64,000 nt of DNA from Candidatus Pelagibacter communis (GTDB taxonomy: Bacteria; Pseudomonadota; Alphaproteobacteria; Pelagibacterales; Pelagibacteraceae), in contig NZ_LANA01000002.1 of NCBI RefSeq assembly GCF_012932795.1, positions 1 through 64,000 of the forward strand, written 5' to 3'. The translations under genes and the position numbers were made by a program. Positions within the stretch are counted from its first letter, which is position 1. Every line of letters starts with the position of its first letter. The notes under the pieces are model-generated. The model searched no databases and was not told the origin of the DNA. It worked only from the letters and a program-made list of their open reading frames with translations. Below, in pieces: positions 37,178 to 58,718 of this stretch.

Positions 37178-37179
37178 TA

Positions 37180-38747: not shown

Positions 38748-38761
38748 AAATTTTTTTAAGT

Positions 38762-38914: not shown

Positions 38915-38931
38915 GATTGTATAATTTTTGT

Positions 38932-38963: not shown

Positions 38964-38979
38964 AAATTTTTAATTGATA

Positions 38980-39204
38980 TTACCAGTCGGTAATATTGCT
39001 CTTATGATCATTAGCACCATGTCTTTTTCTAGCCAATCTCGAGAGCTTTTCACTCTCAGATTTGTTAGTAAGGACATGCCAGCCAATCCAGAAAACTACA
39101 CCTAGAATAACTAGTAAAGTTTCACTAGATCCAGCTCCGGGATAAACTGCTCCAACAACTTCCTTAGCACTTAAATGATCTATCCAGTTTGTTACTGTAG
39201 CCAT
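38980..39204 (-). CDS. small membrane protein next to amtB, 74 aa
   Basis: A 74-residue protein with one membrane helix (TLLVILGVVFWIGWHVLT, about 29-46) and a charged C-terminal tail rich in Arg, Lys and His. A perfect AAAGGAG ribosome site precedes it. It is 12 bases downstream of amtB and ends shortly before a strong terminator, so it is made with the ammonium transporter. It may be an Amt accessory protein; no known family is recognised. Confidence 0.7.
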   Translation of the reverse strand: MATVTNWIDHLSAKEVVGAVYPGAGSSETLLVILGVVFWIGWHVLTNKSESEKLSRLARKRHGANDHKSNITDW

Positions 39205-39216
39205 ATTTTTTCTCCT

Positions 39217-40617: not shown

Positions 40618-40687
40618 AATCTCTCTCCTATATTAGTTTCAGAAATCTTATGAAATTTAGGGAGGTGTGACAAACTAAACATTTCTT

Positions 40688-40715
40688 AAAAACCCAATAC
40701 AGACGGTGAGTTTTT
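40688..40715 (-). terminator. hairpin between glxD-type operon and amtB
   Basis: On the minus strand AAAAACTCA can pair with TGGGTTTTT over nine positions (one G-T) across a ten-base loop. It lies after the 135-residue ORF and before amtB and could end the upstream transcript. The U tract is inside the stem, so strength is uncertain. Confidence 0.4.
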
Positions 40716-40743
40716 AAAAAATAAACAACTCTTGATTGTGATG

Positions 40744-41151
40744 CTAGAATTTTAGGTAAGCTTTTTTCAAATCAACAAGCGGATGTTTTGGAGACATTTG
40801 AAACTTAACTAAAAGCTCTCTTGCTATCATATCTCTATCTTGTTGGTTATCAGGTAATTTAATTGATTTTGGAATAGTTACCCATCCATTTGCATTTCTA
40901 CAAAATACTGCAGGTCTATCTTCTTCATAACCCATATGAACATCTTCTAACCAATTAAGGTCATCCCAACCCATAGCTTCTACATACCTTTTTAGGAATG
41001 GAGTAATTCTTTTATAGTCTGGTAGTAAATTAACATCATATCTATAACCAATATGCTGACCAATTAATTTCTCTCTAGCTGTCTCTTTAAAAGTACCCAG
41101 TTTAAGTTTCTTTTCTTTTTTAACTTTTGCTTTTACTTTTTTTTTAACCAT
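40744..41151 (-). CDS. hypothetical protein, 135 aa, Lys-rich head
   Basis: A 135-residue protein with a very basic head (MVKKKVKAKVKKEKKLKLG) and a globular remainder with HIGYRYDVNLLPDYKRITP, MGWDDLNWLEDVHMGYEEDR and FCRNANGWVTIPKSIKLP. There is no membrane segment. It follows the GlxD-type gene by nine bases and appears to be a fixed member of this operon. The head resembles the Lys-rich N terminus of the preceding GlxD. Function unknown. Confidence 0.6.
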   Translation of the reverse strand: MVKKKVKAKVKKEKKLKLGTFKETAREKLIGQHIGYRYDVNLLPDYKRITPFLKRYVEAMGWDDLNWLEDVHMGYEEDRPAVFCRNANGWVTIPKSIKLPDNQQDRDMIARELLVKFQMSPKHPLVDLKKAYLKF

Positions 41152-41160
41152 TTTTGATCC

Positions 41161-42585
41161 TTATATTTTATGATAATTGTCAACACCAACTGTATAGTTA
41201 GTTCCAGTCATAGGGACTTTTGCTAAAGCAGATGCCTCCATAGTCAGAGCAGCTAAATCTTCAGGTTCTAAAGAGTGAATATTTGTTTTACCACAAGCTC
41301 TTGCTAAAAGTTGAGCCTCTAGTGTCATTGCATGTAAGTAATTATAAACTCTTAATGCAGCATCATCAGGATTTAATCTGGCTCTTAATTTAGGATCTTG
41401 TGTAGCGACACCAACTGGACAACGACCAGTATGGCAGTGATAACATTCACCGGCTTTTACACCCATTTCTTTTTCAAAATTAGCTTCAGGTATATCTTTA
41501 TTACAGTTTAAAGCGATCATTGATCCAGTACCAATTGCTATTGCATCAGCACCTAATGCTAAAGCTTTAGCCATATCAGCACCATCCCTAACACCACCAG
41601 CATAAATTAAAGTTACTTGTCCAGTTTTACCAACATCGTCGATAGCTCTTCTAGCTTCTCTGATAGCAGCGATTCCTGGAATACCAGTATTAGCAGCAGC
41701 TATGTGTGGTCCAGCTCCAGTTGACCCTTCCATTCCATCTAGATAAATAGAGTCAGGATTACACTTTGCAGCCATACGGACATCATCATAAACTTTTGAC
41801 GCACCAAGTTTTAACTGAATTGGTACTTTATTTTTTGTTAATTGTCTTAACTCTTCAACTTTTAAAGCTAAATCATCAGGACCTAACCAGTCAGGATGTC
41901 TTGCGGGAGATCGTTGATCAATACCAGAAGGTAAAGATCTCATCTCAGCAACTTGATCAGTTACTTTTTGACCCATTAAGTGTCCACCCATTCCAACTTT
42001 TTGTCCTTGGCCAATAAACACCTCAATTCCATCTGCAAGTTGAGCATGATGAGGGTTAAAACCGTATCTTGATTGAATACATTGGTAATACCATTTTTCA
42101 GAATATCTTCTTTCATCAGGTATCATTCCGCCTTCACCAGAACATGTAGCACTTCCAGCCATTGTAGCTCCTCTTGCTAAAGCAGTTTTTGCTTCATAAG
42201 AAAGGGCACCAAAACTCATACCTGTAATATACACTGGTATGTCTAACTCAATTGGGTTTTCACAATTAGGACCAATTACAGTTTTAGTTTCACATTTTTC
42301 TCTGTAACCTTCAATTACAAACCTTGTGAGAGTACCTGGTAAAAAAACTAAATCATCAAATGTTGGAATCTTTTTCATTAATGCCATTCCACGCATTCTG
42401 TATCTTCCAAGTTGAGCTTTAATATGAATATCGTCTATGACTTCAGGAGTAAAAATAGCATTGTGTCCTAATAAACTTTTATTTCTTTTGCCTTCTTCAT
42501 GAGCATGAACGTCAGCTTTTCCTCCAACGCTACCGTTTGATTTTTTTAATTTTTTTTCATTTTTTTTAGTTTTCTTTTTAGCCAT
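41161..42585 (-). CDS. glxD: GlxD-type FMN glutamate-synthase-domain protein (second set, with Cys cluster)
   Basis: A 474-residue paralogue of the protein at 35849-37177, with a Lys-rich extension of about 40 residues. FMN-barrel motifs GMSFGALSYEAKTALARGA, GQGQKVGMGGHLMG and VRDGADMAKALALGADAIAI are kept. Unlike the other copy it has three cysteines (GECYHCHTGRCPVGVATQ) in the place of the GltB 3Fe-4S ligands. It therefore probably carries an Fe-S centre and takes electrons differently. Its start touches the GlxC stop. Confidence 0.8.
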   Translation of the reverse strand: MAKKKTKKNEKKLKKSNGSVGGKADVHAHEEGKRNKSLLGHNAIFTPEVIDDIHIKAQLGRYRMRGMALMKKIPTFDDLVFLPGTLTRFVIEGYREKCETKTVIGPNCENPIELDIPVYITGMSFGALSYEAKTALARGATMAGSATCSGEGGMIPDERRYSEKWYYQCIQSRYGFNPHHAQLADGIEVFIGQGQKVGMGGHLMGQKVTDQVAEMRSLPSGIDQRSPARHPDWLGPDDLALKVEELRQLTKNKVPIQLKLGASKVYDDVRMAAKCNPDSIYLDGMEGSTGAGPHIAAANTGIPGIAAIREARRAIDDVGKTGQVTLIYAGGVRDGADMAKALALGADAIAIGTGSMIALNCNKDIPEANFEKEMGVKAGECYHCHTGRCPVGVATQDPKLRARLNPDDAALRVYNYLHAMTLEAQLLARACGKTNIHSLEPEDLAALTMEASALAKVPMTGTNYTVGVDNYHKI

Positions 42586-43439
42586 TAGATAGCTCCTTTC
42601 TTTTCTGTAGGTTCTAGATTATCATAGTTCCAAAGTTTTTTACCTGCGACTATTTTTGTCATTTTACTAACATCAAATTTTTCACCTATCTCTGCAACTT
42701 TTAGTTTTCTTTTTAACCAGTCTTGATCACTGTTAGTAAGATCTGCAGTAACCGCATCACTTCCAAAAGAACTAATTTTACCACCAATAAATATTGTTCC
42801 ATCATACATTGAGTCACCCAAATTTATTCCAACATCGCCAAGAATAATTATTCTTCCTCTTTGCATCATAAAACCAGTAAACGCTCCAGCATCACCACCA
42901 ATAATAATAGTTCCACCCTTCATATCAATACCAGTTCTAGCACCAACACTTCCTTTACAAATTAAATCTCCACCTCTTATTGCGGCACCAAAACAAGAGC
43001 CAGCATTTTTTTCAATAACAACTTTTCCAGCCATTAAGTTTTCTGCGCAAGACCATCCTACTCTACCATTAATTCTAACTGTAGGTCCATCACATGAGCC
43101 CATGCCAAAATAACCCAAACTTCCTTCGAAAATTAAATTTAGTTTATTTAAAATACCAACACCCAAACTATGTTTTCCTTGAGGGTTTTTAATAACAATT
43201 GTTCCATAACCTTGGCTCATTAAATTATCTATCTCTTTATTAGCTTCAGGAGCTGTCATTTCATTAACATCTAACTCTGTTCTTTTATTAAAATCTACAT
43301 CGTAAGTCCCAAAGTAAAAAAAATTTTCTGCCTCATCTGGGTTGAAAAACTTTTGTTGAGTTCTACCAGTTAAAACTTCGGTATGCATACCCATTGACTG
43401 GGACTTTGTTTTTTTCTCTGTAGTCTTTAAATTTGCCAT
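42585..43439 (-). CDS. glxC: GlxC-type GXGXG-domain protein (second set)
   Basis: A 284-residue beta-helix protein like the GltB C-terminal domain: FEGSLGYFGMGSCDG, INGRVGWSCAENLMAG, CKGSVGARTGIDMKGG, LGDVGINLGDSMYDG. About 50 residues longer than the MgsB-like copy, with an N-terminal extension. It overlaps the amidotransferase gene by 13 bases, the same overlap length as in the other set. Confidence 0.82.
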   Translation of the reverse strand: MANLKTTEKKTKSQSMGMHTEVLTGRTQQKFFNPDEAENFFYFGTYDVDFNKRTELDVNEMTAPEANKEIDNLMSQGYGTIVIKNPQGKHSLGVGILNKLNLIFEGSLGYFGMGSCDGPTVRINGRVGWSCAENLMAGKVVIEKNAGSCFGAAIRGGDLICKGSVGARTGIDMKGGTIIIGGDAGAFTGFMMQRGRIIILGDVGINLGDSMYDGTIFIGGKISSFGSDAVTADLTNSDQDWLKRKLKVAEIGEKFDVSKMTKIVAGKKLWNYDNLEPTEKKGAI

Positions 43440-44371
43440 ACTTTTACCTCCCCATCAAATGGATCATATGTATCTATCTCTTGCGGTAGAATTGATCTGA
43501 TTGCTATTTCTTCTGAACCCATTGCTACTAAATCATCTGACTCATAAAGAACCAAAGGTTTTGCAGCCATTGTATCTTTAGCCATTCCTAAAGAATCTAT
43601 AGTTGCAACAAAATATGTAAATACTCCATCAAGGCCTGTTAAAGAAGCTTTCATCCCCTCTTCAAGAGATGCTCCTTCTCTCATTTTTTGAGCAATGTAT
43701 ACAGCAATCAATTCTGAATCACATTCAGACATAAACCTCATACCTTTGTTTTCTAGTAACCTTCTGTTGTTCCAATAATTAGTTAATTGACCATTATGAA
43801 CTACAGAAACATCACTAAAAGGATAACCCCAAAAAGGGTGAGCTGACTTAATATCTACACCAGACTCTGTAGCCATTCTAGCATGCCCAATTGCATGAGT
43901 TCCAACTACTTTATCCAAATCATATCTATCACAAACCATTTTAGCGTTACCTAAATCTTTTATAACCTCTAATGATTTTCCCATAGAAAGAATCTCAACA
44001 CCTGGAATGCTTTCAATTTTTTGAGAAAATTTTAATAAATCTTTTGTTTCATATACAATTTCATATCTCAAAGAGTAGGGTAGAACTCTTTCTTCTTTAA
44101 TTATTTTAGCACCTAGCTCAGATAAGTATTGATCAACAATTTTTTTTCTTTCATCATAAACTGAAACATCTTCAACTATCGAAGAGCTTCCTTCACCAAC
44201 ATTTTCACCAACCTTAAAACGCATAATAAAGTTTTTACCATCTGTATCACCATATAACGCGTAACCAGTAGAATCTTCTCCTCTATGTTTTAATGCTTGA
44301 AGCATTCCTTGTAGTTCACTTCCTACATTGGATGATTTTCCTCTATGTATTAATCCTGCTATTCCACACAT
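43427..44371 (-). CDS. glxB: GlxB-type class II glutamine amidotransferase (second set)
   Basis: A 314-residue Ntn amidotransferase beginning MCGIAGLIHRG, with KHRGEDSTGYALYG, GHARMATESGVD and VVHNGQLTNYWNNRR. It supplies ammonia or an amine to the GlxD part. It sits 25 bases after the GS-like gene. Confidence 0.82.
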   Translation of the reverse strand: MCGIAGLIHRGKSSNVGSELQGMLQALKHRGEDSTGYALYGDTDGKNFIMRFKVGENVGEGSSSIVEDVSVYDERKKIVDQYLSELGAKIIKEERVLPYSLRYEIVYETKDLLKFSQKIESIPGVEILSMGKSLEVIKDLGNAKMVCDRYDLDKVVGTHAIGHARMATESGVDIKSAHPFWGYPFSDVSVVHNGQLTNYWNNRRLLENKGMRFMSECDSELIAVYIAQKMREGASLEEGMKASLTGLDGVFTYFVATIDSLGMAKDTMAAKPLVLYESDDLVAMGSEEIAIRSILPQEIDTYDPFDGEVKVWQI

Positions 44372-44396
44372 TTATTTCCCCTGTTTCTATTAAAGA

Positions 44397-45866
44397 TTAT
44401 GGTAGACAATCCAGATATGTATCTAGATCCCATTGAGTTGTTGCACCTAAGAATTTTTCCCATTCATCATTTTTGTACCAATGAAAAACTTTATACATTT
44501 CATCTGGCATAGCTGATTTAATAACTTCATCTTCTGCTAAACGATTTAATGCCTCCCCTAGACTTAAAGGTAGTTTTTTAACTTCTTTTCCAGCAGCTTG
44601 AGCTTCATACATACTTCTAGATTCTGGTTTTCCTGGATCAATATTATTTGTTAACCCGTCATCAAAACATTTTAATAAACCAGAACCCATTAAATATGGA
44701 TTGTGCATTGAGTCAACTGAACGATATTCAAATCTACCTGGTGCTGAAACTCTTAACCCACATGTTCTATTTTGATATCCCCAGTCAGCATAAACAGGAG
44801 CCCAAAAACCTGTATCCCATAATCGTCTATATGAGTTAACAGTTGAAGAGCCAATTGCAGTTAAGGCACCCAAATGTTTCATTACACCACCAATTGCTTT
44901 CAAACCAATTTTACCTGGTAACTGAACATCTTTTGTATCTGGCATAAATGTATTTGTTCCACCTTCTACATAAGTGAAAACATGGTCCATCCCTGGCAAT
45001 GATTTATGAGATAATTTATTAATCACATCTTTTCCACCTGTCCATAAGGACATATTTGTATGACAGCCACTTGCTGACACACCCATAAAAGGTTTTGTCA
45101 TGAAACAAGCTATTAAATTAAATTCTCTAGCTACTTGTGCGCAAATTTGTCTGTAAGTTGATAATCTATCTGCATTTCTTAAAACATCATCATACATCCA
45201 GTTTAATTCTAATTGTCCTGGTGCATCTTCATGATCCCCTTGAATCATGTCAAAACCCATTGCTCTAGCATATTTAAAGACTTGCATAAAAACTGGTCTT
45301 AACGACTCAAATTGATCTATATGATAACAATAAGGTTTAGAAAAACCCTTACCGGTAGGTGAACCATCTTCATTTTTAGTTAACCACATCATTTCTGGCT
45401 CTGTTCCAACTCTTAATTGGTAGCCATGTTTTTTTTTAAATTCTTGTGCATGTATTCTTAAATTTCCACGGCAGTCCGAAGTTAGATGTGCGCCTGGATT
45501 ATCTCTTTCTTCTCTATTTCTAAAGCAAGTAACAAATACCCTTGCAACTTTTTTATCCCAAGGAAGTTGACAAAAAGTCTCAGGATCAGGTATGCCAACA
45601 AGCTCTTTAGCCTCTGGTCCATAACCAATATAATTTCCATGACGATCTGTGAACAAGTTTGCTGTAGCACCGTAAACTAATTGAAAGCCTTTTTCACAAG
45701 TTCTTTCCCAATGATCAGTTGGAATACCTTTACCTACAACTCTTCCAGTTACTGAAATAAATTGAAAAAAAATATATTCAACACCCAGCTCATTAATCTT
45801 AGCTCGTACTTGCTTTACTAATTTGTCTCTACCGGGTTGCGCAACATGCTTCTCTAAATCAGTCAT
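44397..45866 (-). CDS. glutamine-synthetase-like ligase (GS type III/GlnT-like), second set
   Basis: A 489-residue GS-fold ligase. Visible motifs: VEYIFFQFISVTGRVVGKGI, RVGTEPEMMW, QGDHEDAPGQLELNWMYDD, SASGCHTNMSLW and RTCGLRVSAPGRFEYRSVD. It is related to, but clearly distinct from, the GmaS-like gene at 34481 and the cassette ligase at 13135. With GlxBCD behind it and an FAD oxidoreductase before it, it probably handles a second glutamyl-amine or glutamine-type intermediate. An ATTAGAGAGAGG purine tract, shared with tmm, is just upstream of the ATG. Confidence 0.78.
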   Translation of the reverse strand: MTDLEKHVAQPGRDKLVKQVRAKINELGVEYIFFQFISVTGRVVGKGIPTDHWERTCEKGFQLVYGATANLFTDRHGNYIGYGPEAKELVGIPDPETFCQLPWDKKVARVFVTCFRNREERDNPGAHLTSDCRGNLRIHAQEFKKKHGYQLRVGTEPEMMWLTKNEDGSPTGKGFSKPYCYHIDQFESLRPVFMQVFKYARAMGFDMIQGDHEDAPGQLELNWMYDDVLRNADRLSTYRQICAQVAREFNLIACFMTKPFMGVSASGCHTNMSLWTGGKDVINKLSHKSLPGMDHVFTYVEGGTNTFMPDTKDVQLPGKIGLKAIGGVMKHLGALTAIGSSTVNSYRRLWDTGFWAPVYADWGYQNRTCGLRVSAPGRFEYRSVDSMHNPYLMGSGLLKCFDDGLTNNIDPGKPESRSMYEAQAAGKEVKKLPLSLGEALNRLAEDEVIKSAMPDEMYKVFHWYKNDEWEKFLGATTQWDLDTYLDCLP

Positions 45867-47722: not shown

Positions 47723-50050
47723 TTAAGCTCTAACTCTTGATTTTGTTGGATCATAGAAAGGGAAGGGAACAACTTTTGCACCAATTCTTTTTTGATGACC
47801 ATCAAGCTTTCCAACTTCAACTTCGGTTCCTATTTCAGAATATTTTACATCAATTTTACAAAGTGCAATATTTTTTCCAAGTTTAGGTGATAACATCCCA
47901 CTTGTTATTACACCCACTTGACCACGACCTATATGAACACAATCTCCATTTACTGCTGGCTCATGACCAACTAATTCTAGACCAGCTAATTTTTTTTGTG
48001 GATTTGCTTTTCTTTTAATTAATTCTTCTTTACCTATAAAATCATCTTCTTTAGTTTTTAGAGGAACGGTAAAACCAATTCCAGCTTCGAAAGGGTCTGT
48101 TTGATCGTCAAACTCATAGCCATAAAAAATAAGGCCAGCTTCTATACGAACCATGTCTAAAGCTTCTAAGCCTAATGGAGTGATATCAAACTCTTTACCA
48201 GCTTCCCAAACTTTATCCCAAACCTCTGCTGCATCTTTTGGATGACACCATATCTCATAACCAAGTTCACCCGTGTAACCTGTTCTTGAAATAACAATTG
48301 GTGTTCCAGTTTCATGATCTATTCTTGCAATATTAAATCTGAACCATTCAAGTTCAGTGATCGATGGTTGTATTGGAGGTGTCCATACAAATTTTTCTAA
48401 AATTTTTCTACTATTTGGACCTTGAACTGCAATGTTATGAATTTGATCTGTTGCAGATTTAATCCAAACCTTATAATTTTTCTTTTTGGCTTGTTCTTTT
48501 AACCATTCACCACTGTATTCATCTCCACCAATCCATCGAAAGTTATCTTGTCCTAATTTAAATAAAGTACCGTCATCTAGCATGCGGCCATTTTCATAAC
48601 ACATAGCTGTATAAACAACTTGGCCAACTGATAATTTTTTAATATTTCTAGTAAGTGTATATTGCATTAAATTTTCTGCATCGGGTCCAAGAATTTCAAA
48701 CTTTCTAAGAGGTGATAAGTCTGTTACAATTGCACTTTCCCTACAAGCTGTATATTCTTTTATAGTTCCTGATTTCGTAAAATTGTTTGAAAGCCAGAAA
48801 CCTTTATATTCAATAAAATTTCTTGTTAGTTCTGAGGTTTTTTTGTGAAAACCAGTTTCTTGAGTTAGCTTAGGTTCAGAGTCTGTTTTCATTCTAAATG
48901 CTGTTGCTTTTGAATATTTTTTTTCTTTTGAATAAGTCCTAACAAAAATATCAGTTGGATTCCACCCATTTGCACCATCAACATCACAGGGACAAGCTGA
49001 TGATATACATGTTAGATCTTTTAAAGCTCTAAATAAAACATAATCCCCAGGTCTTGACCAGGGTTCATCAAATGAAGCAACATTATTAGCATCAATAGCA
49101 GTATTAAAAAAAAGGTTTATTGCAGACCAACTTTTTCTAGAATTAATGTCATATTTATCAAGTCTATTATTAAAATTATCTGTACAGTTAATATGGCCCA
49201 TATACCCCATATCCTCATAATATTTTGATGTGCAAGCAAGATTAAAAGTGTCATGCCGTCCAACTGTATCTCTTACAACTTCAATCATTGCTTCATGATC
49301 ACCATCATAAAACTTTGAAAACAAACCAGGCCCAGGGTAAGCACCACCCATAAACGTTCGTGTTGCTTTATCATCTATAATACTTTCAATTCCTTCATTT
49401 AATTTATGTGTATCAAAAGCTAAAAAATCTGAGCATTGTCTTCCACCTGGGTCAATTATTTGAATATATTCACCAGCTTTTACTTCGTAAGTTTCAGCAG
49501 TTCTTCTTTTAACAAGTTGCTCTATAATTGGATCGCTAAGTGGATCGGGCAAAATAAATTGTTCATCAGTTTCAATAAATTTAGCTTTATTTAAAAAAAT
49601 AGTTAAATCTGTTGGTGGATTTTGTTCATGAACATTCATTGCATCACCAGGTGCAGCAATCATAACCACACACTTATCTTTTGAAGTTAGTGTTATTTTT
49701 TCACCCATCATACAATCATTGTTAAAAATAATTGATGATTTAGCATTGCTTAAGTCAAAGTTTTTTTTCTTTAGTAGCTTTGAAATTTTTTCATCAGTAG
49801 AAATAGTTTTTTTTAAAAAATCTGCATTAGCATTTTCTTTTAGATTTAAAATAGATAAATCAGATTTACCTTTTGAATTAAAAACAATTATTTCACAAAT
49901 TTGTCTTCCTTCTTCATTGATGATTTCTATTTTATCATCTGGTGAAATTTCTATTATTGAAAGACCACCACCTTTTACAGGATATCTTTCAACTCCTGGT
50001 GGTAAAGTTCTTAAGCCGGGATTTCTTATATCATTACTAGTATGTAGCAT
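47723..50050 (-). CDS. tdm: trimethylamine N-oxide demethylase
   Basis: A 775-residue protein with two parts: an N-terminal DUF1989-type region (about 1-400) and a GcvT/aminomethyltransferase-like folate-binding region (about 405-775, with MVRIEAGLIFYGYEF and GELGYEIW). Cys289 (HINCTD), Cys353 and Cys355 (CPC) have the spacing of the three zinc-binding cysteines described for Methylocella Tdm, and Asp208 in RQCSDF sits at the equivalent of its catalytic Asp. The enzyme cleaves TMAO to dimethylamine and formaldehyde, the folate domain capturing the C1 unit. It is divergent from the tmoX-like gene. Cytoplasmic; no signal peptide. Confidence 0.92.
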   Translation of the reverse strand: MLHTSNDIRNPGLRTLPPGVERYPVKGGGLSIIEISPDDKIEIINEEGRQICEIIVFNSKGKSDLSILNLKENANADFLKKTISTDEKISKLLKKKNFDLSNAKSSIIFNNDCMMGEKITLTSKDKCVVMIAAPGDAMNVHEQNPPTDLTIFLNKAKFIETDEQFILPDPLSDPIIEQLVKRRTAETYEVKAGEYIQIIDPGGRQCSDFLAFDTHKLNEGIESIIDDKATRTFMGGAYPGPGLFSKFYDGDHEAMIEVVRDTVGRHDTFNLACTSKYYEDMGYMGHINCTDNFNNRLDKYDINSRKSWSAINLFFNTAIDANNVASFDEPWSRPGDYVLFRALKDLTCISSACPCDVDGANGWNPTDIFVRTYSKEKKYSKATAFRMKTDSEPKLTQETGFHKKTSELTRNFIEYKGFWLSNNFTKSGTIKEYTACRESAIVTDLSPLRKFEILGPDAENLMQYTLTRNIKKLSVGQVVYTAMCYENGRMLDDGTLFKLGQDNFRWIGGDEYSGEWLKEQAKKKNYKVWIKSATDQIHNIAVQGPNSRKILEKFVWTPPIQPSITELEWFRFNIARIDHETGTPIVISRTGYTGELGYEIWCHPKDAAEVWDKVWEAGKEFDITPLGLEALDMVRIEAGLIFYGYEFDDQTDPFEAGIGFTVPLKTKEDDFIGKEELIKRKANPQKKLAGLELVGHEPAVNGDCVHIGRGQVGVITSGMLSPKLGKNIALCKIDVKYSEIGTEVEVGKLDGHQKRIGAKVVPFPFYDPTKSRVRA

Positions 50051-50163
50051 TGCCAGTATAAATTTTAATAATTTAAGTTTAACTTAATATAATCAAAGAG
50101 CATTGACTATAAATTTAATTAATGAGAACATGTTGAATTAACTTAATATTGAGGGAGAAAAAT
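50051..50163. promoter_or_regulatory. divergent tdm / tmoX promoter region with repeated 12-mer
   Basis: The spacer between the two divergent genes contains TTAACTTAATAT twice in direct orientation, at 50079-50090 and 50138-50149, with a perfect TATAAT at 50088-50093 overlapping the first. A TTGACT is at 50103-50108. The second copy lies at the tmoX ribosome site (GAGGGAG). The repeats may be regulator sites coordinating uptake and demethylation. Confidence 0.4.
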
Positions 50164-51132
50164 ATGAAAAATAAATTGCCGTTAATTATCGCAGCAGTGG
50201 TAATTGTTGTTGGCGCAATTTTCTTTATGCAAGGTGGAGACAAAACTGCCAAAAAAGGTGGTGATAGTGCTCAACCTATAATTATTGCCACTCATAATTG
50301 GTCAAGCCAAATTGTAATGGCTCACGTTATTGGTGGAATTTTTGAAAGCATGGGGAATAATGTAAGCTATGTAAACACTGACTCACAAGCTGTATACGAA
50401 TCTATTCGTATAGGTGATGTATCTTTAGCACATGAAGTTTGGGAATCTGCTTTTGGTAAATCATTTACTACAGCGCTTGATAAAGGTGGAATAGTTGATT
50501 GGGGTGATCATGAAGCAAGAACTCTTGAGGATATGGGATATCCAAACTGGGTTGCTGATAAAGGATTATGTCCTGGTCTTCCAGATTGGACTGCATTAAA
50601 AAATCCAGATTGTGCTGCAAACTTTGCAACACCTGATTCAGATGGAAAAGGAAGAATGTTGGAAGGTCCACAATCTTGGCACGGAGATTTAATACCTCAG
50701 AGAGTTGATGCTCTTGGTTTAGGTGATCTTTGGACTGTTAAATTTGCTGGAAGTGCAGATGCACTTTGGGCAGAACTTAAAGCTGCTGAGAAAGAAGGAA
50801 GAGGAACTATAATATTCAACTGGACTCCAAACTTTACAGATGGAAAAGGTTTCACATTTATAGACTTCCCTCCATACTCTGCTGGTTGTAGACCAGAAGA
50901 TGGTGGTGATGGAAAATGTGGATCTCCAGATGGTTATTTGAAAAAAGCTGTAAATGCTGATTTTCCAACAACTCATCCAGCTGCAGCAGCAGTGTTCAAA
51001 AAAATGTCATTCTCAACAAGTCATATCGGGGCAATGGCTGCTTTAGTAGACGAAGATAAAATGACTCATGAAGATGCTGCTAAAAAATGGTTAGCTGACA
51101 ATAAGAGTGTTTGGCAACCTTTTACAAAATAA
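50164..51132 (+). CDS. tmoX: TMAO-type ABC transporter substrate-binding protein (TmoX/OpuAC family)
   Basis: About 322 residues from the ATG at 50164, chosen because the GAGGGAG ribosome site directly precedes it (the frame itself opens at 50149). An N-terminal membrane/signal helix (LPLIIAAVVIVVGAIFFM) is followed by an OpuAC-type binding domain rich in Trp, including ATHNWSSQIVMAHVIGG, GPQSWHGDLIPQRVD and IIFNWTPNFTDG, suited to caging a quaternary amine. Cys pairs (CPG with NPDC, CRPEDGGDGKC) may form disulfides. Proximity to tdm and tmm favours TMAO, though choline, betaine or DMSP could also bind. A strong terminator follows. Confidence 0.82.
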   Translation: MKNKLPLIIAAVVIVVGAIFFMQGGDKTAKKGGDSAQPIIIATHNWSSQIVMAHVIGGIFESMGNNVSYVNTDSQAVYESIRIGDVSLAHEVWESAFGKSFTTALDKGGIVDWGDHEARTLEDMGYPNWVADKGLCPGLPDWTALKNPDCAANFATPDSDGKGRMLEGPQSWHGDLIPQRVDALGLGDLWTVKFAGSADALWAELKAAEKEGRGTIIFNWTPNFTDGKGFTFIDFPPYSAGCRPEDGGDGKCGSPDGYLKKAVNADFPTTHPAAAAVFKKMSFSTSHIGAMAALVDEDKMTHEDAAKKWLADNKSVWQPFTK

Positions 51133-51231: not shown

Positions 51232-51675
51232 ATGATTAAATATTTTTTATGCATTTTTCTTGGTCTACTAATCTTTAATTTATCTTTTGCACAAAATATT
51301 GATATACAGGAAGATATTAAAATTGGTTTTGTATGTAAATTAGAAAAAAAAATACTTAAGAATTCAGAATACAATTATCAAACTTTTTTAGCTAAAGATT
51401 TAAATGAAAAAAATTTAGAAAAATTTGAAATCGATTCAAAAAAACCAGAAAAACTTTTGATTAATGGATTATCAATGTTTCTCTCAAAAAATACTAAATT
51501 AGACGTAAAAGTTGTAAACAAAAACATAGTTTTATTTAAAGCTTTTGACGAAGAAAAAAACTATTCAGAGTCGGGTATAATCAATAGAGAATCAGGTGAA
51601 TTAGTTCATGAAGTTACAAAAGACATTAAAAGTGATAACTTTAAAAAAGATATTTCTTTTTATAAATGTAGTTAA
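51232..51675 (+). CDS. hypothetical exported protein, 147 aa
   Basis: A 147-residue Lys-rich protein with a signal peptide (MIKYFLCIFLGLLIFNLSFA). The mature part has two Cys, one near the start (FVCKL) and one at the very end (YKCS), which could form a disulfide. No family is recognised. It is the first of three small genes lying between tmoX and tmoWV. Confidence 0.6.
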   Translation: MIKYFLCIFLGLLIFNLSFAQNIDIQEDIKIGFVCKLEKKILKNSEYNYQTFLAKDLNEKNLEKFEIDSKKPEKLLINGLSMFLSKNTKLDVKVVNKNIVLFKAFDEEKNYSESGIINRESGELVHEVTKDIKSDNFKKDISFYKCS

Positions 51676-51683
51676 ATAATAAA

Positions 51684-52058
51684 ATGAAAAAATATATTCT
51701 TTACACAATCCTAAGTTTTTTAATTGCAACTTCGGTGTCAGCTAGAAAGACGGGCTGTGAGGGAAACTGTGAAAATGGTTTTGGTAAATGGACTTATACA
51801 GACAAAACAACTTATGAAGGAAATTGGGTAGGTACACAAAAACAAGGCCTAGGAACTGAAACTTGGCCAAATGGATATATTTACAAAGGTGAATTTAATA
51901 AAAGCAACTGGAGTGGAAAAGGAATTTTAACCTTCCCTGATGGATCCACTTATGAAGGTGAATGGGCCAATGGTTTTATGAATGGAAAAGGAAAATTCAC
52001 CTGGTCTAATGGAAAAGAAAAAATAGGAATTTGGGAAAATGGCAAATTACAAGAATAA
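51684..52058 (+). CDS. MORN-repeat exported protein
   Basis: A 124-residue protein with a signal peptide (MKKYILYTILSFLIATSVSA) and about four MORN repeats (FGKWTYTDKTTYEGNW, WPNGYIYKGEF, FPDGSTYEGEW, WSNGKEKIGIW). MORN repeats form an extended beta sheet and often bind membranes or proteins. Role unknown; translated with the neighbouring small genes. Confidence 0.8.
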   Translation: MKKYILYTILSFLIATSVSARKTGCEGNCENGFGKWTYTDKTTYEGNWVGTQKQGLGTETWPNGYIYKGEFNKSNWSGKGILTFPDGSTYEGEWANGFMNGKGKFTWSNGKEKIGIWENGKLQE

Positions 52059-52060
52059 AT

Positions 52061-52615
52061 ATGAATATAAAATATTTTAGCAAGTTAAGAGAATTATTAC
52101 CTGAGCCAGTTAGACAATTGGGCGGTCTTGTTTCCTTAACATTCGTTGTGATTTTTTCTTTTGCTATTTTAAATATTTTTTTTGGCCAGGGTGATGAGCT
52201 GGTGGAAAAAATGAAAAAAGAAGAAACAAGAATTGCAGAAGCCAACAAACTAAGTAAAATTATTTCCACACTTCCGACAGGTATTTTAACTTTTTATGAA
52301 GGAAGTGGTAATTACAAATTATCTAAAGAACAATATGAAACAGTCTGCAAAATAACAAAAATTATCCCTCAACGTGCTGTTATGGGTGCTAATTTAATAA
52401 ATTTTAAAGCTACACAAATATACAATGCTAATGGTAATCAAATTGCTGAAACATTTGTTAATTGGGATAAAAAAGAAAAAAAATGTATTGCTGGTTTTGT
52501 TTTAATTGGAAGTGTTAATGATGGAGAAAAAGAAAAAATTACTGTCAGTGGGGAAGTTTTAAATTTTTTAAGCACAGGAATCGACACAAGAGTTTATTTT
52601 ATTAAAAATTTTTAA
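52061..52615 (+). CDS. hypothetical membrane-anchored protein, 184 aa
   Basis: The ATG at 52061, two bases after the MORN stop, is preferred over an upstream TTG inside that gene. The protein has one membrane helix (LGGLVSLTFVVIFSFAILNI, about 20-39), then a charged helix and a domain with EGSGNYKLSKEQYETVCKI. Two cysteines occur in the outer part. No family is recognised. Confidence 0.6.
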   Translation: MNIKYFSKLRELLPEPVRQLGGLVSLTFVVIFSFAILNIFFGQGDELVEKMKKEETRIAEANKLSKIISTLPTGILTFYEGSGNYKLSKEQYETVCKITKIIPQRAVMGANLINFKATQIYNANGNQIAETFVNWDKKEKKCIAGFVLIGSVNDGEKEKITVSGEVLNFLSTGIDTRVYFIKNF

Positions 52616-52688: not shown

Positions 52689-53720
52689 ATGACTAATGCT
52701 GTAATTAAGTGCGATTCAGTTTACAAAATTTTTGGGGCAAACGCAAAAAAGATGCTCCAAGACGCCAATGGAAATGTGGATGCAAAAACATTTCAAGATA
52801 ATGGGTGTATAGTGGGTGTAAACAATGCTTCTTTCGAAGTTTCAAAAGGAGAAATGCTAGTTGTGATGGGTTTATCTGGATCAGGAAAGTCAACATTATT
52901 AAGATGTATTTCCAGATTAACAGATGCAACTAGTGGAAAAATTTTTATAGAAGGTCAAAACCTACTTTCATTAAATAATAAAGAGTTAATTGATCTTAGA
53001 AGAAATAAAATGGGAATGGTGTTTCAAAGTTTTGCTCTACTTCCACATAAAACAGTCTTAGAAAATATTGCTTTTCCTCTTCAAATTAAAGGCATTGAAG
53101 ATCAAGAGAGTATCAATAAGGCTATGGATATGGTTAAACTTGTTGGTCTAGATGGAAGGGAAAATTATTTTCCAAGAGAGCTTTCAGGGGGACAACAACA
53201 AAGAGTAGGTATTGCCCGTTCATTAGCTGTTGAACCTGATATTTGGTTTTTAGATGAACCTTTTTCTGCATTAGATCCATTAATTAGAAAAGAAATGCAG
53301 GATGAATTTTTGCGACTTCAAGAAAAGTTACAAAAAACAATTATGTTTATTACACATGATTTTGATGAAGCATTAAAGCTTGCTGACCGTATTGCAATTA
53401 TGAAAGATGGAATAATTGAACAACTAGATACGCCAGCTAACATTGTATTAAACCCAGCAACGGAATATGTTAGAAAATTTACCCAAGAGGTGCCTAGAGA
53501 AAAAGTATTGAAAATAGAAGATATTATGGAAAAACCACATAATGAAAATTTAAGTGATTTAAAAGTTTTGAAAAATGAAACAATCGAAAATGTAGCTGAA
53601 AAGATTTTAACCCAAGAAAAATCTGTGGGGGTAATTGATGAAAATAATCAAATTGTTGGAACCGTTCACCCTTCAAAAATAATTAATACTGTTTTCGGTG
53701 GAAAAAAAAATAGTGATTAA
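52689..53720 (+). CDS. tmoW: ABC transporter ATP-binding protein, TmoW/OpuAA-like
   Basis: A 343-residue ATPase of the glycine-betaine/proline family: Walker A MGLSGSGKSTLLR near residue 61, signature LSGGQQQRVGIARS, Walker B DIWFLDEPFSALDP, switch ITHDFDEA. About 70 C-terminal residues after 270 look like a CBS-type regulatory segment (KNETIENVAEKILTQEKSVG). An unusual head (NAKKMLQDANGNVDAKTF) precedes the ATPase core, as in this subfamily. It couples to the double permease three bases downstream. Confidence 0.85.
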   Translation: MTNAVIKCDSVYKIFGANAKKMLQDANGNVDAKTFQDNGCIVGVNNASFEVSKGEMLVVMGLSGSGKSTLLRCISRLTDATSGKIFIEGQNLLSLNNKELIDLRRNKMGMVFQSFALLPHKTVLENIAFPLQIKGIEDQESINKAMDMVKLVGLDGRENYFPRELSGGQQQRVGIARSLAVEPDIWFLDEPFSALDPLIRKEMQDEFLRLQEKLQKTIMFITHDFDEALKLADRIAIMKDGIIEQLDTPANIVLNPATEYVRKFTQEVPREKVLKIEDIMEKPHNENLSDLKVLKNETIENVAEKILTQEKSVGVIDENNQIVGTVHPSKIINTVFGGKKNSD

Positions 53721-53723
53721 AAT

Positions 53724-55877
53724 ATGGAGCTAATAAAAAAAAATCCAAAATTATTTCAATGGTTATTTTTAATAACTGTATTTTTCTTTTTATGCTTTGC
53801 AATTGAAGTTCCTGAAACTTACAAATTTATAAGAGGTCAGGCCGAATTCATTAAAGACCCAAATCAAAGCACTTACACACTCTTTGGTGCAGAAGTAAGA
53901 TATTATGCATTTGATGTTTTTTGGAGATTACCTCCTTTGCTTGGATGGCTGCCTATCTGGATAAACGATTCCTTATTTTTTTTAATGAACGAATGGATGC
54001 CAATGGAGTTTTGGAATGAAAGTACACAATCATACAAAACTCGACCTTTAGTTTTACAATTAACAAGAAACATGACTGCTTTCATGACATTTCTTATTGA
54101 ACTAATTAGAGAAATTATGTTAGGAGGCGTTCAAACTGTCGTCGCATTTACTAGTTGGGACTGGATAGACGCAAATCCATGGGCAAAACTACCAGGGTTA
54201 CCTTGGACAATTGTTACAGCGGGTGCAGTAATACTTGGGTATAACTTGAGTGGAAAAGGTTTAGCTTTATTCGCTGGTATAGTTATGATTTATATTTCTA
54301 TATTTGGTCAATGGAAGCCATCGATGCAAACTCTCTCTTTTATATTGGTTGCGGCGCCACTTTCTTTTGTTTTTGGCTTAGGCCTAGGTATTGCAGCTTT
54401 CAAAAGTAAACGTGTTGAAAAAGCCTTGTCTCCAATACTTTTAGTTATGCAGACTATGCCTCAATACGCTGTATTAGTTCCTGCAATTGTTCTTTTTGGT
54501 GTTGGTGACCACGCAGCGGTTATTATAACTATGGTTGTTGCAGTTCCCCCAATGATATTATTAACATTGTTAGGCCTTAGGGGAATACCCCCTGAAGTTA
54601 TTGAGGCTGGCAGAATGAGTGGATGCAATAATTGGCAACTCATGTTCAAGGTATTAATTCCAACTGCAAGACGAGACATATTAATAGGTGTAAACCAAGT
54701 GATTATGGTGTGTTTTTCTATGGCAGTTATTTCAGCTTTTATAGGTGCCAAAGGATTAGGTTTTAATTTATTGCTTGCATTAAATCAATTGAATATTGGA
54801 TTGGCACTAGAGGCAGGTTTATGTATTAGTTTAATTGCAATACTTTTAGATAAGATGTCTTTAGCTTGGGCAAATAAACAAATAGATTATTTTGGTAATC
54901 TAACTTTTTTTGAGCAACATAAAAATGGACTGTGTTTTGCTGGTGTAGTATTGGTTGGGACTGTACTTGCTTATGTTGGATCTTTTTACTTTAAGGAAGG
55001 TTTTAATTATTTATATGAAGTACCACACAATAAAGGAATATCAACAGCAGATTTTTGGAACAGAGGTGTTGATTGGATTTGGGATACTTTTTTTTATACT
55101 TTAAAAATATTTAACACCTGGTTAATCACAGAAGTTCTTCAACCAATGAGAGCATTATATTTAAGAATGCCAGCTGTTGCCACTTTAGTATTGGTTATCG
55201 GCGCAGGCTATATAATAGGTGGAGTGCGTTCAGCTTTTGTAGTGGGTGGATTAACATTATTTATAGCACTAAGTCCTTGGTGGGATAGAGCTTTAGTCAC
55301 TACATACATGGCAACTTTTGGAGTTATTATATCTTGTATAATTGGCTTTACTGTTGGAACTTTATGTTTTCAAAACAAACATACCACAAGTTTTATGTTG
55401 GGCGTTTGTGATATATTTCAAACATTCCCTTCATTTGTATACTTGATACCAGTGATGATGCTTTTTGGTGTTACTGATACATCTGTGTTAATTGCAGTAG
55501 TTGTTTATGCTACTATACCTGCCACAAGGTATACTATTGAAGGATTGAGAAGCGTACCAGCTGCTTTACATGACGCGGCTTCAATGTCAGGTGTAACAAA
55601 AATACAAAGGTTAATGAAAATAGAATTTCCTTTAGCATTTCCTCACATGATGCTTGGTTTAAATCAAACCATTGTATTTGCTTTATTTATGGTAATTATT
55701 GGAGCGTTTATTGGAACAGAAGATTTGGGACAGTATATTCTAAAAGCTTTATCTGACAAAAAGGGTGCGGGTATAGGTTTAACTTTAGGTATTTGTGTTG
55801 CTTTTATTGGATTGGTATTTGACCATTTAATTCGAACTTGGGTAGAGCAAAGAAAAAAACACCTGGGTATAGTTTAG
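53724..55877 (+). CDS. tmoV: ABC transporter double permease, TmoV/OpuAB-like
   Basis: A 717-residue membrane protein holding two fused permease domains: the first EAA loop is near residue 290 (PPEVIEAGRMSGCNNWQLMF) and the second near 612 (PAALHDAASMSGVTKIQRLM), each preceded by a QT-MP/FPS helix pair. OpuAB-type permeases are usually about 280-300 residues, so the fusion provides both halves of the channel in one chain, as in TmoV of marine bacteria. Its stop overlaps the convergent dddK-like gene by four bases. Confidence 0.87.
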   Translation: MELIKKNPKLFQWLFLITVFFFLCFAIEVPETYKFIRGQAEFIKDPNQSTYTLFGAEVRYYAFDVFWRLPPLLGWLPIWINDSLFFLMNEWMPMEFWNESTQSYKTRPLVLQLTRNMTAFMTFLIELIREIMLGGVQTVVAFTSWDWIDANPWAKLPGLPWTIVTAGAVILGYNLSGKGLALFAGIVMIYISIFGQWKPSMQTLSFILVAAPLSFVFGLGLGIAAFKSKRVEKALSPILLVMQTMPQYAVLVPAIVLFGVGDHAAVIITMVVAVPPMILLTLLGLRGIPPEVIEAGRMSGCNNWQLMFKVLIPTARRDILIGVNQVIMVCFSMAVISAFIGAKGLGFNLLLALNQLNIGLALEAGLCISLIAILLDKMSLAWANKQIDYFGNLTFFEQHKNGLCFAGVVLVGTVLAYVGSFYFKEGFNYLYEVPHNKGISTADFWNRGVDWIWDTFFYTLKIFNTWLITEVLQPMRALYLRMPAVATLVLVIGAGYIIGGVRSAFVVGGLTLFIALSPWWDRALVTTYMATFGVIISCIIGFTVGTLCFQNKHTTSFMLGVCDIFQTFPSFVYLIPVMMLFGVTDTSVLIAVVVYATIPATRYTIEGLRSVPAALHDAASMSGVTKIQRLMKIEFPLAFPHMMLGLNQTIVFALFMVIIGAFIGTEDLGQYILKALSDKKGAGIGLTLGICVAFIGLVFDHLIRTWVEQRKKHLGIV

Positions 55878-56248
55878 TTAAAATATTCAACCTCTGAAAA
55901 ACGATCTGTAGGAAAAATCCAATAAAATTTTAAAGTATCTTTTCCATTATTTTTCAAAGCGTGTTTTGCATTTCCTGCTATATAAACTACATCACCTTCT
56001 TTAATCTTTTCTAGTTCACCAGATTTATTTAATATTCCAGAGCCCCCGGTAACAACATATATTTCTGCAGGTGAATGGTAATGAAGCGTCAAGTCTCCAC
56101 CTGGTGCAATTTCAGCAAAGCCGAGTGAAAGTCCAGAACTTCCTGCAAAATCTGCATCAATTAAAAATTTCCATCTTACCCCAGGATATTTTTCTGTTGT
56201 TGACCACTCTTGATCAGAAACTGATTTAAGATTATTTACAAATATCAT
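55874..56248 (-). CDS. dddK: DMSP lyase of the DddK cupin type
   Basis: A 124-residue single cupin. HYHSPAEIYVVTGG gives His56, His58, Glu62 and Tyr64, NAKHALKN gives His96, and EVEYFN gives Tyr122. These are the same numbers as the metal ligands and the two functional tyrosines reported, to my knowledge, for DddK of Pelagibacter HTCC1062. The enzyme splits dimethylsulfoniopropionate into dimethyl sulfide and acrylate. The C terminus is a few residues shorter than the described enzyme. It lies head-on to tmoV and directly downstream of tmm on the same strand. No acrylate-detoxifying gene is adjacent. Confidence 0.82.
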   Translation of the reverse strand: MIFVNNLKSVSDQEWSTTEKYPGVRWKFLIDADFAGSSGLSLGFAEIAPGGDLTLHYHSPAEIYVVTGGSGILNKSGELEKIKEGDVVYIAGNAKHALKNNGKDTLKFYWIFPTDRFSEVEYFN

Positions 56249-56268
56249 ACAGAATCAAAGTACAAACT

Positions 56269-57609
56269 TTATTTTTTTGGTTGATCTAAGAAAGCTTTTA
56301 AAGAGTCATCCATTGCTGTTTCCCATGGCGTGTGGTGTAGTGGGCCCACAGAACCTGTTACAGGTGAAGAAAAAGATTTATTTCTATAAGTCATAATATT
56401 TTCAACTTTGTGATGCTCCCATTCTTTGAAATGTTTTCTAATTAATTCAAAATCAATTTTTGGATAATCTGATAAAGAATGAAGTTCTTTTGTATATTCA
56501 GTTTGGAAATCAATCATTTGATCTGGATTTTCTAACTTTTCTTCCATTGATACCCATTTATTTATGTCTTTATCAATATCTGTTTCTTTTGGAATTTTAA
56601 TTTTCCCCATTATAATATCTCTTGCAAACCAAGCCTGACAGTCAAACATATTAAAAGTATGAAATTGATCTTGCATACCTAGGTACATTAATTTGTGATT
56701 GTTTTGCCAAACTACACCTTTGTATAATTTAGGAGGGTACAATCTATTAGTTGTTTTAAGTTTAAGATCTTCAGATATAAAAGGGAAATTATGAAGATAT
56801 CCTGTGCAAAGAATTACAGCATCTGATTCTTGTTCGTGACCATCTTTAAAGATTGCCTTATTTCCTTCAAGTCTGTCTAGGTGATAAACTTCTTTCATTC
56901 CTTTTGGCCAATTAAATCCCATTGGATTGTGTCGATATCCTATGGTGACACTTTTTGCTCCATACTTATGGCATTGAAGAGCAACATCTTCTGCAGAGTA
57001 GCTACTTCCTAAAACAACAACATTTTTACCTCTAAATTCTTCTGCATCTCTAAAATCATGAGAGTGCATTATTCTTCCAGGAAATGATTTCATTCCTGGA
57101 TATTCTGGTATGAATGGAACCGAGAAATGACCTGTAGACACAATCACATAATCAAATACATCTTTTGAAATAATATCATTTTTTTTATCATGATAAGTAA
57201 CTTGAAAAATTTTACCATCATAAGAAACACTAGTTACAGAGGTATTAAATTTAATTTTATTCTTTAAATTTCCCTTTTTAACTCTACCCAAAATGTAATT
57301 ATATAAAACTTCTCTGGGTGGAAAAGATGGAATGGGTTTTCCAAAGTGTTCATCAAATGAATAGTCAGCAAACTCTAAACATTCTTTAGGGCCGTTTGAC
57401 CAAAGATATCTATACATACTATTAGGTACAGGGTCACCATATTGATCAGATCCTGTTCTCCAACTGTAATTCCATAAACCGCCCCAATCTTCTTGTTTAT
57501 CAAAACAAACTATTTCAGGGATCTTTTCACCTTTTTTTTCAGCTTGCTCGAAAGATCTTAAAGCTGATAAACCACAAGGCCCAGCACCAATAACTGCTAC
57601 TTTCGTCAT
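56269..57609 (-). CDS. tmm: trimethylamine monooxygenase
   Basis: A 446-residue flavin monooxygenase. FAD motif GAGPCG is at 8-13, the FMO fingerprint FPGRIMHSHDFRD near residue 175, and NADPH motif VLGSSYSAEDVALQC near 198; the GSSYSAED form is typical of bacterial Tmm. It oxidises trimethylamine to TMAO, the substrate of Tdm, and is known to act on dimethyl sulfide as well, which is notable beside a DMSP lyase gene. The ATG is preceded by ATTAGAGAGAGG. Confidence 0.92.
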   Translation of the reverse strand: MTKVAVIGAGPCGLSALRSFEQAEKKGEKIPEIVCFDKQEDWGGLWNYSWRTGSDQYGDPVPNSMYRYLWSNGPKECLEFADYSFDEHFGKPIPSFPPREVLYNYILGRVKKGNLKNKIKFNTSVTSVSYDGKIFQVTYHDKKNDIISKDVFDYVIVSTGHFSVPFIPEYPGMKSFPGRIMHSHDFRDAEEFRGKNVVVLGSSYSAEDVALQCHKYGAKSVTIGYRHNPMGFNWPKGMKEVYHLDRLEGNKAIFKDGHEQESDAVILCTGYLHNFPFISEDLKLKTTNRLYPPKLYKGVVWQNNHKLMYLGMQDQFHTFNMFDCQAWFARDIIMGKIKIPKETDIDKDINKWVSMEEKLENPDQMIDFQTEYTKELHSLSDYPKIDFELIRKHFKEWEHHKVENIMTYRNKSFSSPVTGSVGPLHHTPWETAMDDSLKAFLDQPKK

Positions 57610-57616
57610 AAAATCA

Positions 57617-57628
57617 CCTCTCTCTAAT
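57617..57628 (-). promoter_or_regulatory. GAGAG purine tract (ATTAGAGAGAGG) at tmm start
   Basis: The minus strand reads ATTAGAGAGAGG seven bases before the tmm ATG, identical over 12 bases to the tract before the GS-like gene at 45866. It could be the ribosome site or a shared control element. Confidence 0.35.
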
Positions 57629-57689
57629 AAATTTATATCTGTACTTTACCAATAAAATGCTAAAAATTAATATAAAAAAATACAGTATT

Positions 57690-58718
57690 ATGAAAAAAAT
57701 TATTATTATTGGTGCTGGAGCTATGGGGTCAGCTTTTGCTGTACCATGTCTTGAAAACCAGAATGAAGTGACACTTGTTGGTACTCATCTTGAGGATAAT
57801 TTAATAAATAATATTCAGTCAAATAATAATTTGCATCCAGCCTTAAATATTGAATTATCATCAAAATTAAAGGTAGAAAAATTTAAGAAATTAAAATCAA
57901 TCCTTGAAGAAGGTGTGGATATAATTGTTGCAGGTGTTAGCTCTGTAGGAATTGAATGGTTTGTTAAACAAATAGCATCAACTTACAAAAAAAATCTTCC
58001 AATTATCTTATTAACAAAAGGTCTAGCTGTAGAGGAAAATGAATTAATAACACTTTCAGATAAAATTAAAAAACTTCTCAAAGAAAAAGGTCATGGAGAT
58101 GTAAATATTTCAGCAATCAAAGGACCTTGTTTAGCAGCAGGTCTTGCATATAAAATGAGAACCGGAACAGTCATTGCAAACCCAGACATTAAGGAAACAG
58201 AAAAATTAAAAAAAATTATATCAACAAATTATTATTCAACAGAAGTGTCAGATGATTTAACTGGCATCGAGTTATCAGGTGCAATTAAAAATATTTATTC
58301 AATGTTAATTGGAGCTTCTGAAGGATTAAGTAATTCAAAAGCACCTAAAGAAATTCAATCTAAATATTATTTAAATACATCAGCCTCATTAATTCATAGA
58401 TCAATTTCTGAAATGGTTGAATTTGTTTCTTTCTATGGAGGTAGAGCAGATACAGTTTATGGTCTAGCTGGTTTAGGTGATTTATATGTAAGTGCAATAG
58501 GGGGAAGAAATAGTTTAATGGGAAAATATTTAGGTGAAGGATATTTATATAAAGAAGCTAAAGAAAAATTTATGAAAAATATTACAGTTGAGGGTGCGCA
58601 ACTTGCATTAGAAATTGGACCTAAAATTTTACAAGATCTTAATTCTAAACATTTTCCATTAATGTTTAGTATGCTAAATACCATATGTGAAAATAAGAAA
58701 TTAGAGATTAAATGGTAA
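57690..58718 (+). CDS. GpsA-like NAD(P)-dependent dehydrogenase
   Basis: About 342 residues from the ATG at 57690, selected because the Rossmann motif KKIIIIGAGAMGSAFAVPCL begins at once; the upstream start at 57657 adds only a basic run. KGPCLA, ELSGAIKNIYSMLIGASEG and TVYGLAGLGDLYVS match the glycerol-3-phosphate dehydrogenase scheme with its catalytic Lys. As it heads a set with an iron alcohol dehydrogenase and an amidotransferase it may reduce or oxidise some other 2-hydroxy or keto phosphate; the housekeeping GpsA role is an alternative. Confidence 0.72.
   Translation: MKKIIIIGAGAMGSAFAVPCLENQNEVTLVGTHLEDNLINNIQSNNNLHPALNIELSSKLKVEKFKKLKSILEEGVDIIVAGVSSVGIEWFVKQIASTYKKNLPIILLTKGLAVEENELITLSDKIKKLLKEKGHGDVNISAIKGPCLAAGLAYKMRTGTVIANPDIKETEKLKKIISTNYYSTEVSDDLTGIELSGAIKNIYSMLIGASEGLSNSKAPKEIQSKYYLNTSASLIHRSISEMVEFVSFYGGRADTVYGLAGLGDLYVSAIGGRNSLMGKYLGEGYLYKEAKEKFMKNITVEGAQLALEIGPKILQDLNSKHFPLMFSMLNTICENKKLEIKW

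What the first reader, a model, noticed from the sequence alone, without database searches (positions are those of the whole stretch)
55874..56248. DddK-type DMSP lyase placed between TMAO transporter and Tmm
His56, His58, Glu62, Tyr64, His96 and Tyr122 of this cupin fall at the residue numbers I recall for DddK. It is beside tmm, whose product can also oxidise dimethyl sulfide, so DMSP to DMS to DMSO could run from two adjacent same-strand genes, and the betaine-type transporter next door could bring in DMSP.
Basis: partly seen in the sequence, partly recalled or inferred. Interest (0 to 1): 0.6.

Follow-up and report, generated by a model that had tools for sequence, protein, structure and literature searches.

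The report
SAR11 DMSP lyase paired with Tmm
A very abundant kind of ocean bacterium carries its DMSP-splitting enzyme gene (DddK) directly behind the gene for an enzyme that can oxidise the product, dimethyl sulfide; the enzyme itself is already known, but this pairing recurs in many relatives and looks older than the arrangement in the standard laboratory strain.

Summary
Window 55874-56248 (-) encodes a 124-aa cupin, 109/123 identical to the crystallised DddK of Pelagibacter HTCC1062. All metal, catalytic and substrate-pocket residues are in register. It lies 20 bp behind tmm on the same strand and overlaps the stop codon of the convergent tmoW by 4 bp. The Tmm is close to Tmm7211, which oxidises DMS in vitro.

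The neighbouring binding protein is TmoX-like (278 bits to R. pomeroyi TmoX, 32 bits to DmpX), and TmoX does not bind DMSP.

dddK is patchy (26 of 399 Pelagibacter genomes) and sits at several sites. At one of them the tmm-dddK pair, with 19-20 bp between the genes, recurs in 22 distinct genomes and persists where the flanks differ. Three dddK-less tmm-tmoW junctions keep a 46-bp scar of the dddK 3' end, and two of those genomes now carry dddK behind fabI, as HTCC1062 does. So dddK was lost from the tmm site and in some lineages probably moved.

Best reading: tmm and dddK are co-transcribed, and DMSP goes to acrylate + DMS, then DMSO. The enzyme identity is near certain; the metabolic coupling is inferred. 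The enzyme is ordinary; the conserved pairing is the modest novelty.

The parts
55874..56248 (-). dddK, cupin DMSP lyase (124 aa)
   Evidence: 109/123 identical to PDB 6a53/5tfz DddK; all 11 published active-site residues in register
56249..56268 (-). 20-bp tmm-dddK spacer; no terminator-like sequence found
   Evidence: spacer of 19-20 bp in the linked genomes; no terminator in 55700-57800
56269..57609 (-). tmm, trimethylamine/DMS monooxygenase (446 aa)
   Evidence: NF058570 745.8 bits over cut-off 675; best PDB match 7d4k Tmm7211, 901 bits, Asp314 conserved
53724..55877 (+). tmoW, fused permease of the TMAO-type ABC transporter, convergent to dddK with a 4-bp overlap of the stops
   Evidence: two BPD_transp_1 domains; coordinates
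52689..53720 (+). tmoV, ABC ATPase of the betaine/TMAO type
   Evidence: TIGR01186 348.5 bits over cut-off 326.6
50149..51132 (+). tmoX, periplasmic TMAO-type binding protein (OpuAC)
   Evidence: 278 bits to 4xz6 (R. pomeroyi TmoX) against 32 bits to 7yle (DmpX)
47723..50050 (-). tdm, trimethylamine N-oxide demethylase
   Evidence: NF053776 1171.5 bits over cut-off 1100

Best explanation
The gene is dddK, a metal-dependent cupin that cleaves DMSP to DMS and acrylate (and DMSOP to DMSO and acrylate). It is the downstream gene of a two-gene unit, tmm-dddK, most likely read from one mRNA. When intracellular DMSP is high, DddK releases DMS and acrylate; Tmm oxidises the DMS to DMSO with NADPH and O2, keeping the sulfur in a non-volatile form; acrylate enters central metabolism through an AcuI-type reductase encoded elsewhere. 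DMSP enters by a transporter other than the neighbouring TmoXWV. The pair is an old arrangement: in several lineages dddK was deleted from behind tmm, and in some, probably including the HTCC1062 line, it now sits behind fabI. Shown: gene identity, conserved pairing, deletion scar. Inferred: co-transcription, DMS flow from DddK to Tmm, relocation.
For: Identity and active site. Eleven catalytic or pocket residues are invariant in 44 of 44 sampled DddK, and dddK in the linked genomes is under strong purifying selection (median dN 0.069, dS 0.766). Tmm identity; DMS oxidation by Tmm7211 in PMC8498191. DMSP and DMSOP cleavage by DddK, DMSO use as a sulfur source by HTCC1062: PMC10686828. Pairing: 22 distinct genomes with tmm then dddK, same strand, 19-20 bp apart, also with different left flanks (L113) or right flanks (L017). 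tmm present in 26 of 29 dddK+ genomes against 147 of 250 in a genus sample. Scar: 46 bp of the dddK 3' end at the tmm-tmoW junction of G292, G423, G363, score 32 against a shuffle maximum of 19, 0/500 each; these tmm genes nest among dddK-linked tmm genes. dmdA and an acuI-type gene are in the genome.
Against: No expression or enzyme data for this genome. In about half of the dddK-bearing genomes the gene is elsewhere (TRAP transporter/amidinotransferase/egtD site, fabI, dimethylglycine-dehydrogenase-like site), so coupling to tmm is not obligatory. The 3' side of tmm is generally a variable junction, so dddK could be a passenger. Tmm's other substrate, TMA, and the tdm/tmo neighbours suffice to explain tmm here. 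The shared leader that suggests movement to fabI is only about 30 AT-rich bases (23/30 identical, 2 of 537 controls as good), and its local alignment barely beats shuffles.
Confidence: 0.62

Rival explanations
1. dddK is a true DMSP lyase, but its place behind tmm is only regulatory convenience: it is switched on together with methylated-amine/TMAO genes because these osmolytes arrive together from phytoplankton, and DMS simply leaves the cell.
For: The region is a methylated-amine cluster (tdm, tmoXWV and tmm). DMS oxidation by Roseobacter Tmm is reported to depend on methylated amines (PMC8498191). DMS is freely diffusible.
Against: The pair stays together when the tmo transporter (L017) or the gpsA-like gene (L113) is not its neighbour, pointing to a link to tmm itself rather than to the cluster.
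Confidence: 0.25
2. The adjacency is neutral: the convergent tmm junction is an insertion hot spot, and dddK landed there once and spread by descent and recombination.
For: Different genes follow tmm in different genomes. dddK is patchy (26/399) and found at several sites. Linked DddK do not reject one clade (p-AU 0.40).
Against: Always co-directional with tmm at a nearly fixed short spacing in two well-separated tmm clades; coding sequence under strong purifying selection.
Confidence: 0.12
3. The protein is a non-lyase cupin that merely resembles DddK.
For: Only the general Cupin_2 model is passed; the Pfam DMSP_lyase model is below cut-off (22.5 against 27 bits), and NCBIfam has no DddK model hit.
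Against: 88.6% identity over the full length to the characterised enzyme; next-best non-DddK chain at 41.8 bits against 243.6; every catalytic and pocket residue kept.
Confidence: 0.01

Closest known systems
DddK of Candidatus Pelagibacter ubique HTCC1062 (PDB 6a53, 5tfz, 8hlf)
   Same: 88.6% identity over 123 aa; same metal ligands, catalytic Tyr64/Tyr122 and aromatic cage
   Different: 124 aa against 130 aa (shorter tail after Tyr122); lies behind tmm here, behind fabI there, about 0.84 Mb from that genome's tmm
Tmm7211 of Pelagibacter HTCC7211 (PDB 7d4k)
   Same: Full-length match of 901 bits; Asp314 conserved; oxidises TMA and DMS in vitro
   Different: Whether HTCC7211 has dddK behind its tmm was not examined here
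TmoXWV of HTCC1062 and R. pomeroyi
   Same: SBP, ATPase and fused permease of the same type beside tdm
   Different: Extra small genes (51232-52615, including a MORN-repeat-like protein) lie between tmoX and tmoV in the window
DmpXWV DMSP importer
   Same: Same superfamily (OpuAC, PF04069)
   Different: The window SBP is far closer to TmoX (278 against 32 bits); the second OpuAC protein of this genome (C2:127371-128225) is only a weak match to DmpX (41.7 bits)

Membership tests
DddK DMSP lyase | Closer to characterised DddK than to any other cupin in the PDB | tested here: met
   243.6 bits against 41.8 for the next non-DddK protein
DddK DMSP lyase | Metal ligands His56, His58, Glu62, His96 | tested here: met
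   All present in the window and in 44/44 sampled homologues
DddK DMSP lyase | Catalytic Tyr64, substrate-positioning Tyr122, aromatic cage Tyr21/Trp26/Phe108/Trp110/Phe117 | tested here: met
DddK DMSP lyase | Releases DMS and acrylate from DMSP | not testable with these tools
   needs purified protein
Tmm (trimethylamine monooxygenase) | Passes the curated equivalog model | tested here: met
   NF058570 745.8 against cut-off 675; 901 bits to Tmm7211
Tmm (trimethylamine monooxygenase) | Oxidises DMS to DMSO | not testable with these tools
   shown in vitro for Tmm7211 (PMC8498191), not for this protein
DMSP importer DmpXWV | Binding protein closest to DmpX | tested here: not met
   TmoX 278 bits, DmpX 32 bits
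TMAO importer TmoXWV | Binding protein closest to TmoX, beside tdm | tested here: met
tmm-dddK operon | Conserved co-directional short spacing without terminator | tested here: met
   19-20 bp in 22 distinct genomes, no terminator-like site in the window
tmm-dddK operon | Single transcript | not testable with these tools
   needs RNA data

The most novel reading that the evidence does not exclude
tmm-dddK is an ancestral SAR11 two-gene module that turns DMSP (via DMS) and DMSOP (directly) into acrylate plus DMSO, so that lineages with the pair emit less DMS. The model strain HTCC1062 carries a relocated dddK, unlinked from tmm, and would therefore misrepresent DMS release by these lineages.
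Probability: 0.3. Interest if true: 0.65.

Novelty: new member of a known kind. Interest (0 to 1): 0.4.

Why it matters
SAR11 cells are among the most abundant in the sea, and whether their DMSP cleavage yields DMS gas or DMSO bears on the marine sulfur budget. Co-occurrence of Tmm and DMSP lyases was known at the level of whole genomes (PMC8498191, PMC8520302). A conserved tight gene pair makes coupled DMSP-to-DMSO conversion directly testable, and shows that dddK position, not only presence, differs between lineages.

Tried and rejected
Local alignment of the 5' leaders of relocated dddK with tmm tails was barely above shuffles. A register-fixed test was better for fabI-site loci, L036 and L031 (21-23/30; 2-8 of 537 controls as good), but negative for the TRAP/amidinotransferase sites; I call relocation probable, not shown. 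HTCC1062's own tmm-tmoW junction shows no significant scar. The claim that all tmm-linked DddK form one clade can be neither shown nor rejected (p-AU 0.40). Promoter-like hits near dddK are no more than chance (11 against 9.0 +/- 3.3); the RNA fold across the convergent end is unremarkable (z 0.06). The Pfam DMSP_lyase model finds no second lyase above cut-off in the genome. Paper searches found no description of tmm-dddK adjacency, but that library lacks most subscription journals, including the original DddK paper.

Full report
What is there. The ORF at 55874-56248 on the minus strand is real and complete: 124 aa, ATG start. It matches the crystallised DddK of Pelagibacter HTCC1062 over its whole length, E 4e-72, while the best non-DddK cupin scores E 1e-9. 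Identity is 109 of 123. In 44 sampled relatives all eleven are invariant (a few of the 44 are the same genome fetched twice). Pfam sees a Cupin_2 domain and only a sub-threshold DMSP_lyase match. Membership therefore rests on close homology to the solved enzyme.

Neighbours. tmm (56269-57609, minus) passes the curated Tmm model and is closest to Tmm7211, which oxidises TMA and, in vitro, DMS (PMC8498191). Downstream, dddK meets tmoW end to end: the stop codons overlap by 4 bp. The transporter's binding protein is TmoX-like by a wide margin, and tdm beyond it passes the TMAO demethylase model. R. pomeroyi TmoX is reported to show no affinity for DMSP (PMC10030565), so uptake of DMSP through this transporter is unlikely. 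One other OpuAC binding protein exists in the genome. It lies beside a TRAP transporter, is nearest in the PDB to the DMSP-binding DmpX (41.7 bits, weak) and is nearer to ProX among curated models. The genome also has dmdA (623 bits, cut-off 410) and a YhdH-family acrylyl-CoA reductase (430 bits, cut-off 297; below the AcuI equivalog cut-off, 361 against 440).

How general. dddK is present in 26 of 399 sampled Pelagibacter genomes. Combining dddK-bearing genomes were placed: tmm-linked in 12, probably linked but cut by a contig end in 1 (G321), unlinked in 15, undetermined in 1. With loci from named single-cell genomes, 22 distinct genomes have tmm followed by dddK on the same strand with 19-20 bp between the genes. 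The pair keeps together when the right flank is not tmoW (L017, where an HIBADH-like and an aldehyde dehydrogenase gene follow) or the left flank differs (L113). tmm itself is in 26 of 29 dddK-bearing genomes against 147 of 250 in a genus sample; incompleteness of single-cell genomes blurs both figures.

Other sites. dddK is also found behind fabI (HTCC1062-size genome G026, whose DddK is identical to 6a53 over 123 residues, and G423, G363), at a site beside egtD and near a TRAP transporter or an amidinotransferase-like gene (nine genomes), near a dimethylglycine-dehydrogenase-like gene (G206, G559), near yajQ (G074) and in one further context (L031). The tree of dddK has two well-supported halves: TRAP/egtD-site and yajQ genes in one; tmm-site, fabI-site, DMGDH-like-site and L031 genes in the other.

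A deletion scar. In G292, G423 and G363 tmm is followed directly by tmoW, but the 60-bp junction contains the last 46 bases of dddK, ending in frame with the sequence ...SFSKVEYFN-stop: alignment score 32 against a shuffle maximum of 17-19, none of 500 as high, while the other dddK-less junctions tested score at the shuffle level. Their tmm genes nest inside the dddK-linked tmm genes. dddK was therefore once behind tmm in that lineage and was deleted. G423 and G363 now have dddK behind fabI, and the roughly 30 bp before that dddK resemble the tmm-stop/spacer sequence of linked loci in register (21-23 of 30; 2 to 8 of 537 controls as good). HTCC1062's tmm also nests among linked tmm genes, but its junction shows no significant scar. 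I conclude that loss from the tmm site is shown for three genomes, that relocation to fabI is probable for two of them, and that the HTCC1062 position is plausibly derived in the same way.

How it likely works. DddK has a reported Km of 82 mM (table in PMC5395565) and SAR11 cells can hold about 180 mM DMSP (PMC10030565), so cleavage would run when the internal pool is high. DMS released inside the cell would meet Tmm made from the same mRNA, giving DMSO, which HTCC1062 can use as a sulfur source (PMC10686828). DMSOP, which DddK cleaves more efficiently, gives DMSO directly. Both routes would converge on acrylate plus DMSO. The chemistry of each step is known for close homologues; the coupling in the cell is inference.

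Novelty. The enzyme and each neighbour are known kinds. Co-occurrence of Tmm and DMSP lyases in genomes, and the suggestion that DMS may be channelled to DMSO, are published (PMC8498191; PMC8520302). I found no description of the tight tmm-dddK pair or of the scar, within an open-access library that lacks many journals.

Noticed in passing
L050, L052, L053 (genomes G292, G423, G363), 60 bp after the tmm stop: 46-bp remnant of the dddK 3' end at a tmm-tmoW junction that no longer has dddK.
   Followed up: yes
L018:7558-8001: dddK and the tmo genes are intact, but instead of the usual tmm there is only the C-terminal part (about 138 aa, 46% identical) of a divergent flavin monooxygenase just before dddK.
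   Followed up: partly
L038, L039, L109 (genomes G137, G140, G474): dddK follows a TRAP transporter (dctP-dctM-dctQ) by 11 bp on the same strand, beside egtD; a similar TRAP set lies beside the second OpuAC transporter in the window's own genome (L114). The TRAP system may carry a related substrate.
   Followed up: partly
L017:8431-10821 and window 18114-20530: HIBADH-like and betaine-aldehyde-dehydrogenase-like genes follow tmm-dddK in L017; a neighbouring pair of similar sizes, whose second gene is likewise closest to betaine-aldehyde dehydrogenase, lies about 36 kb away in the window.
   Followed up: no
window 35849-45866: Glutamine-synthetase-like and glutamate-synthase-like genes and an ammonium transporter, consistent with a methylated-amine (gmaS/N-methylglutamate type) pathway near tmm and tdm.
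   Followed up: no
window 51232-52615: Three small genes, one encoding a MORN-repeat-like protein, sit between tmoX and tmoV and are conserved at that place in relatives.
   Followed up: no
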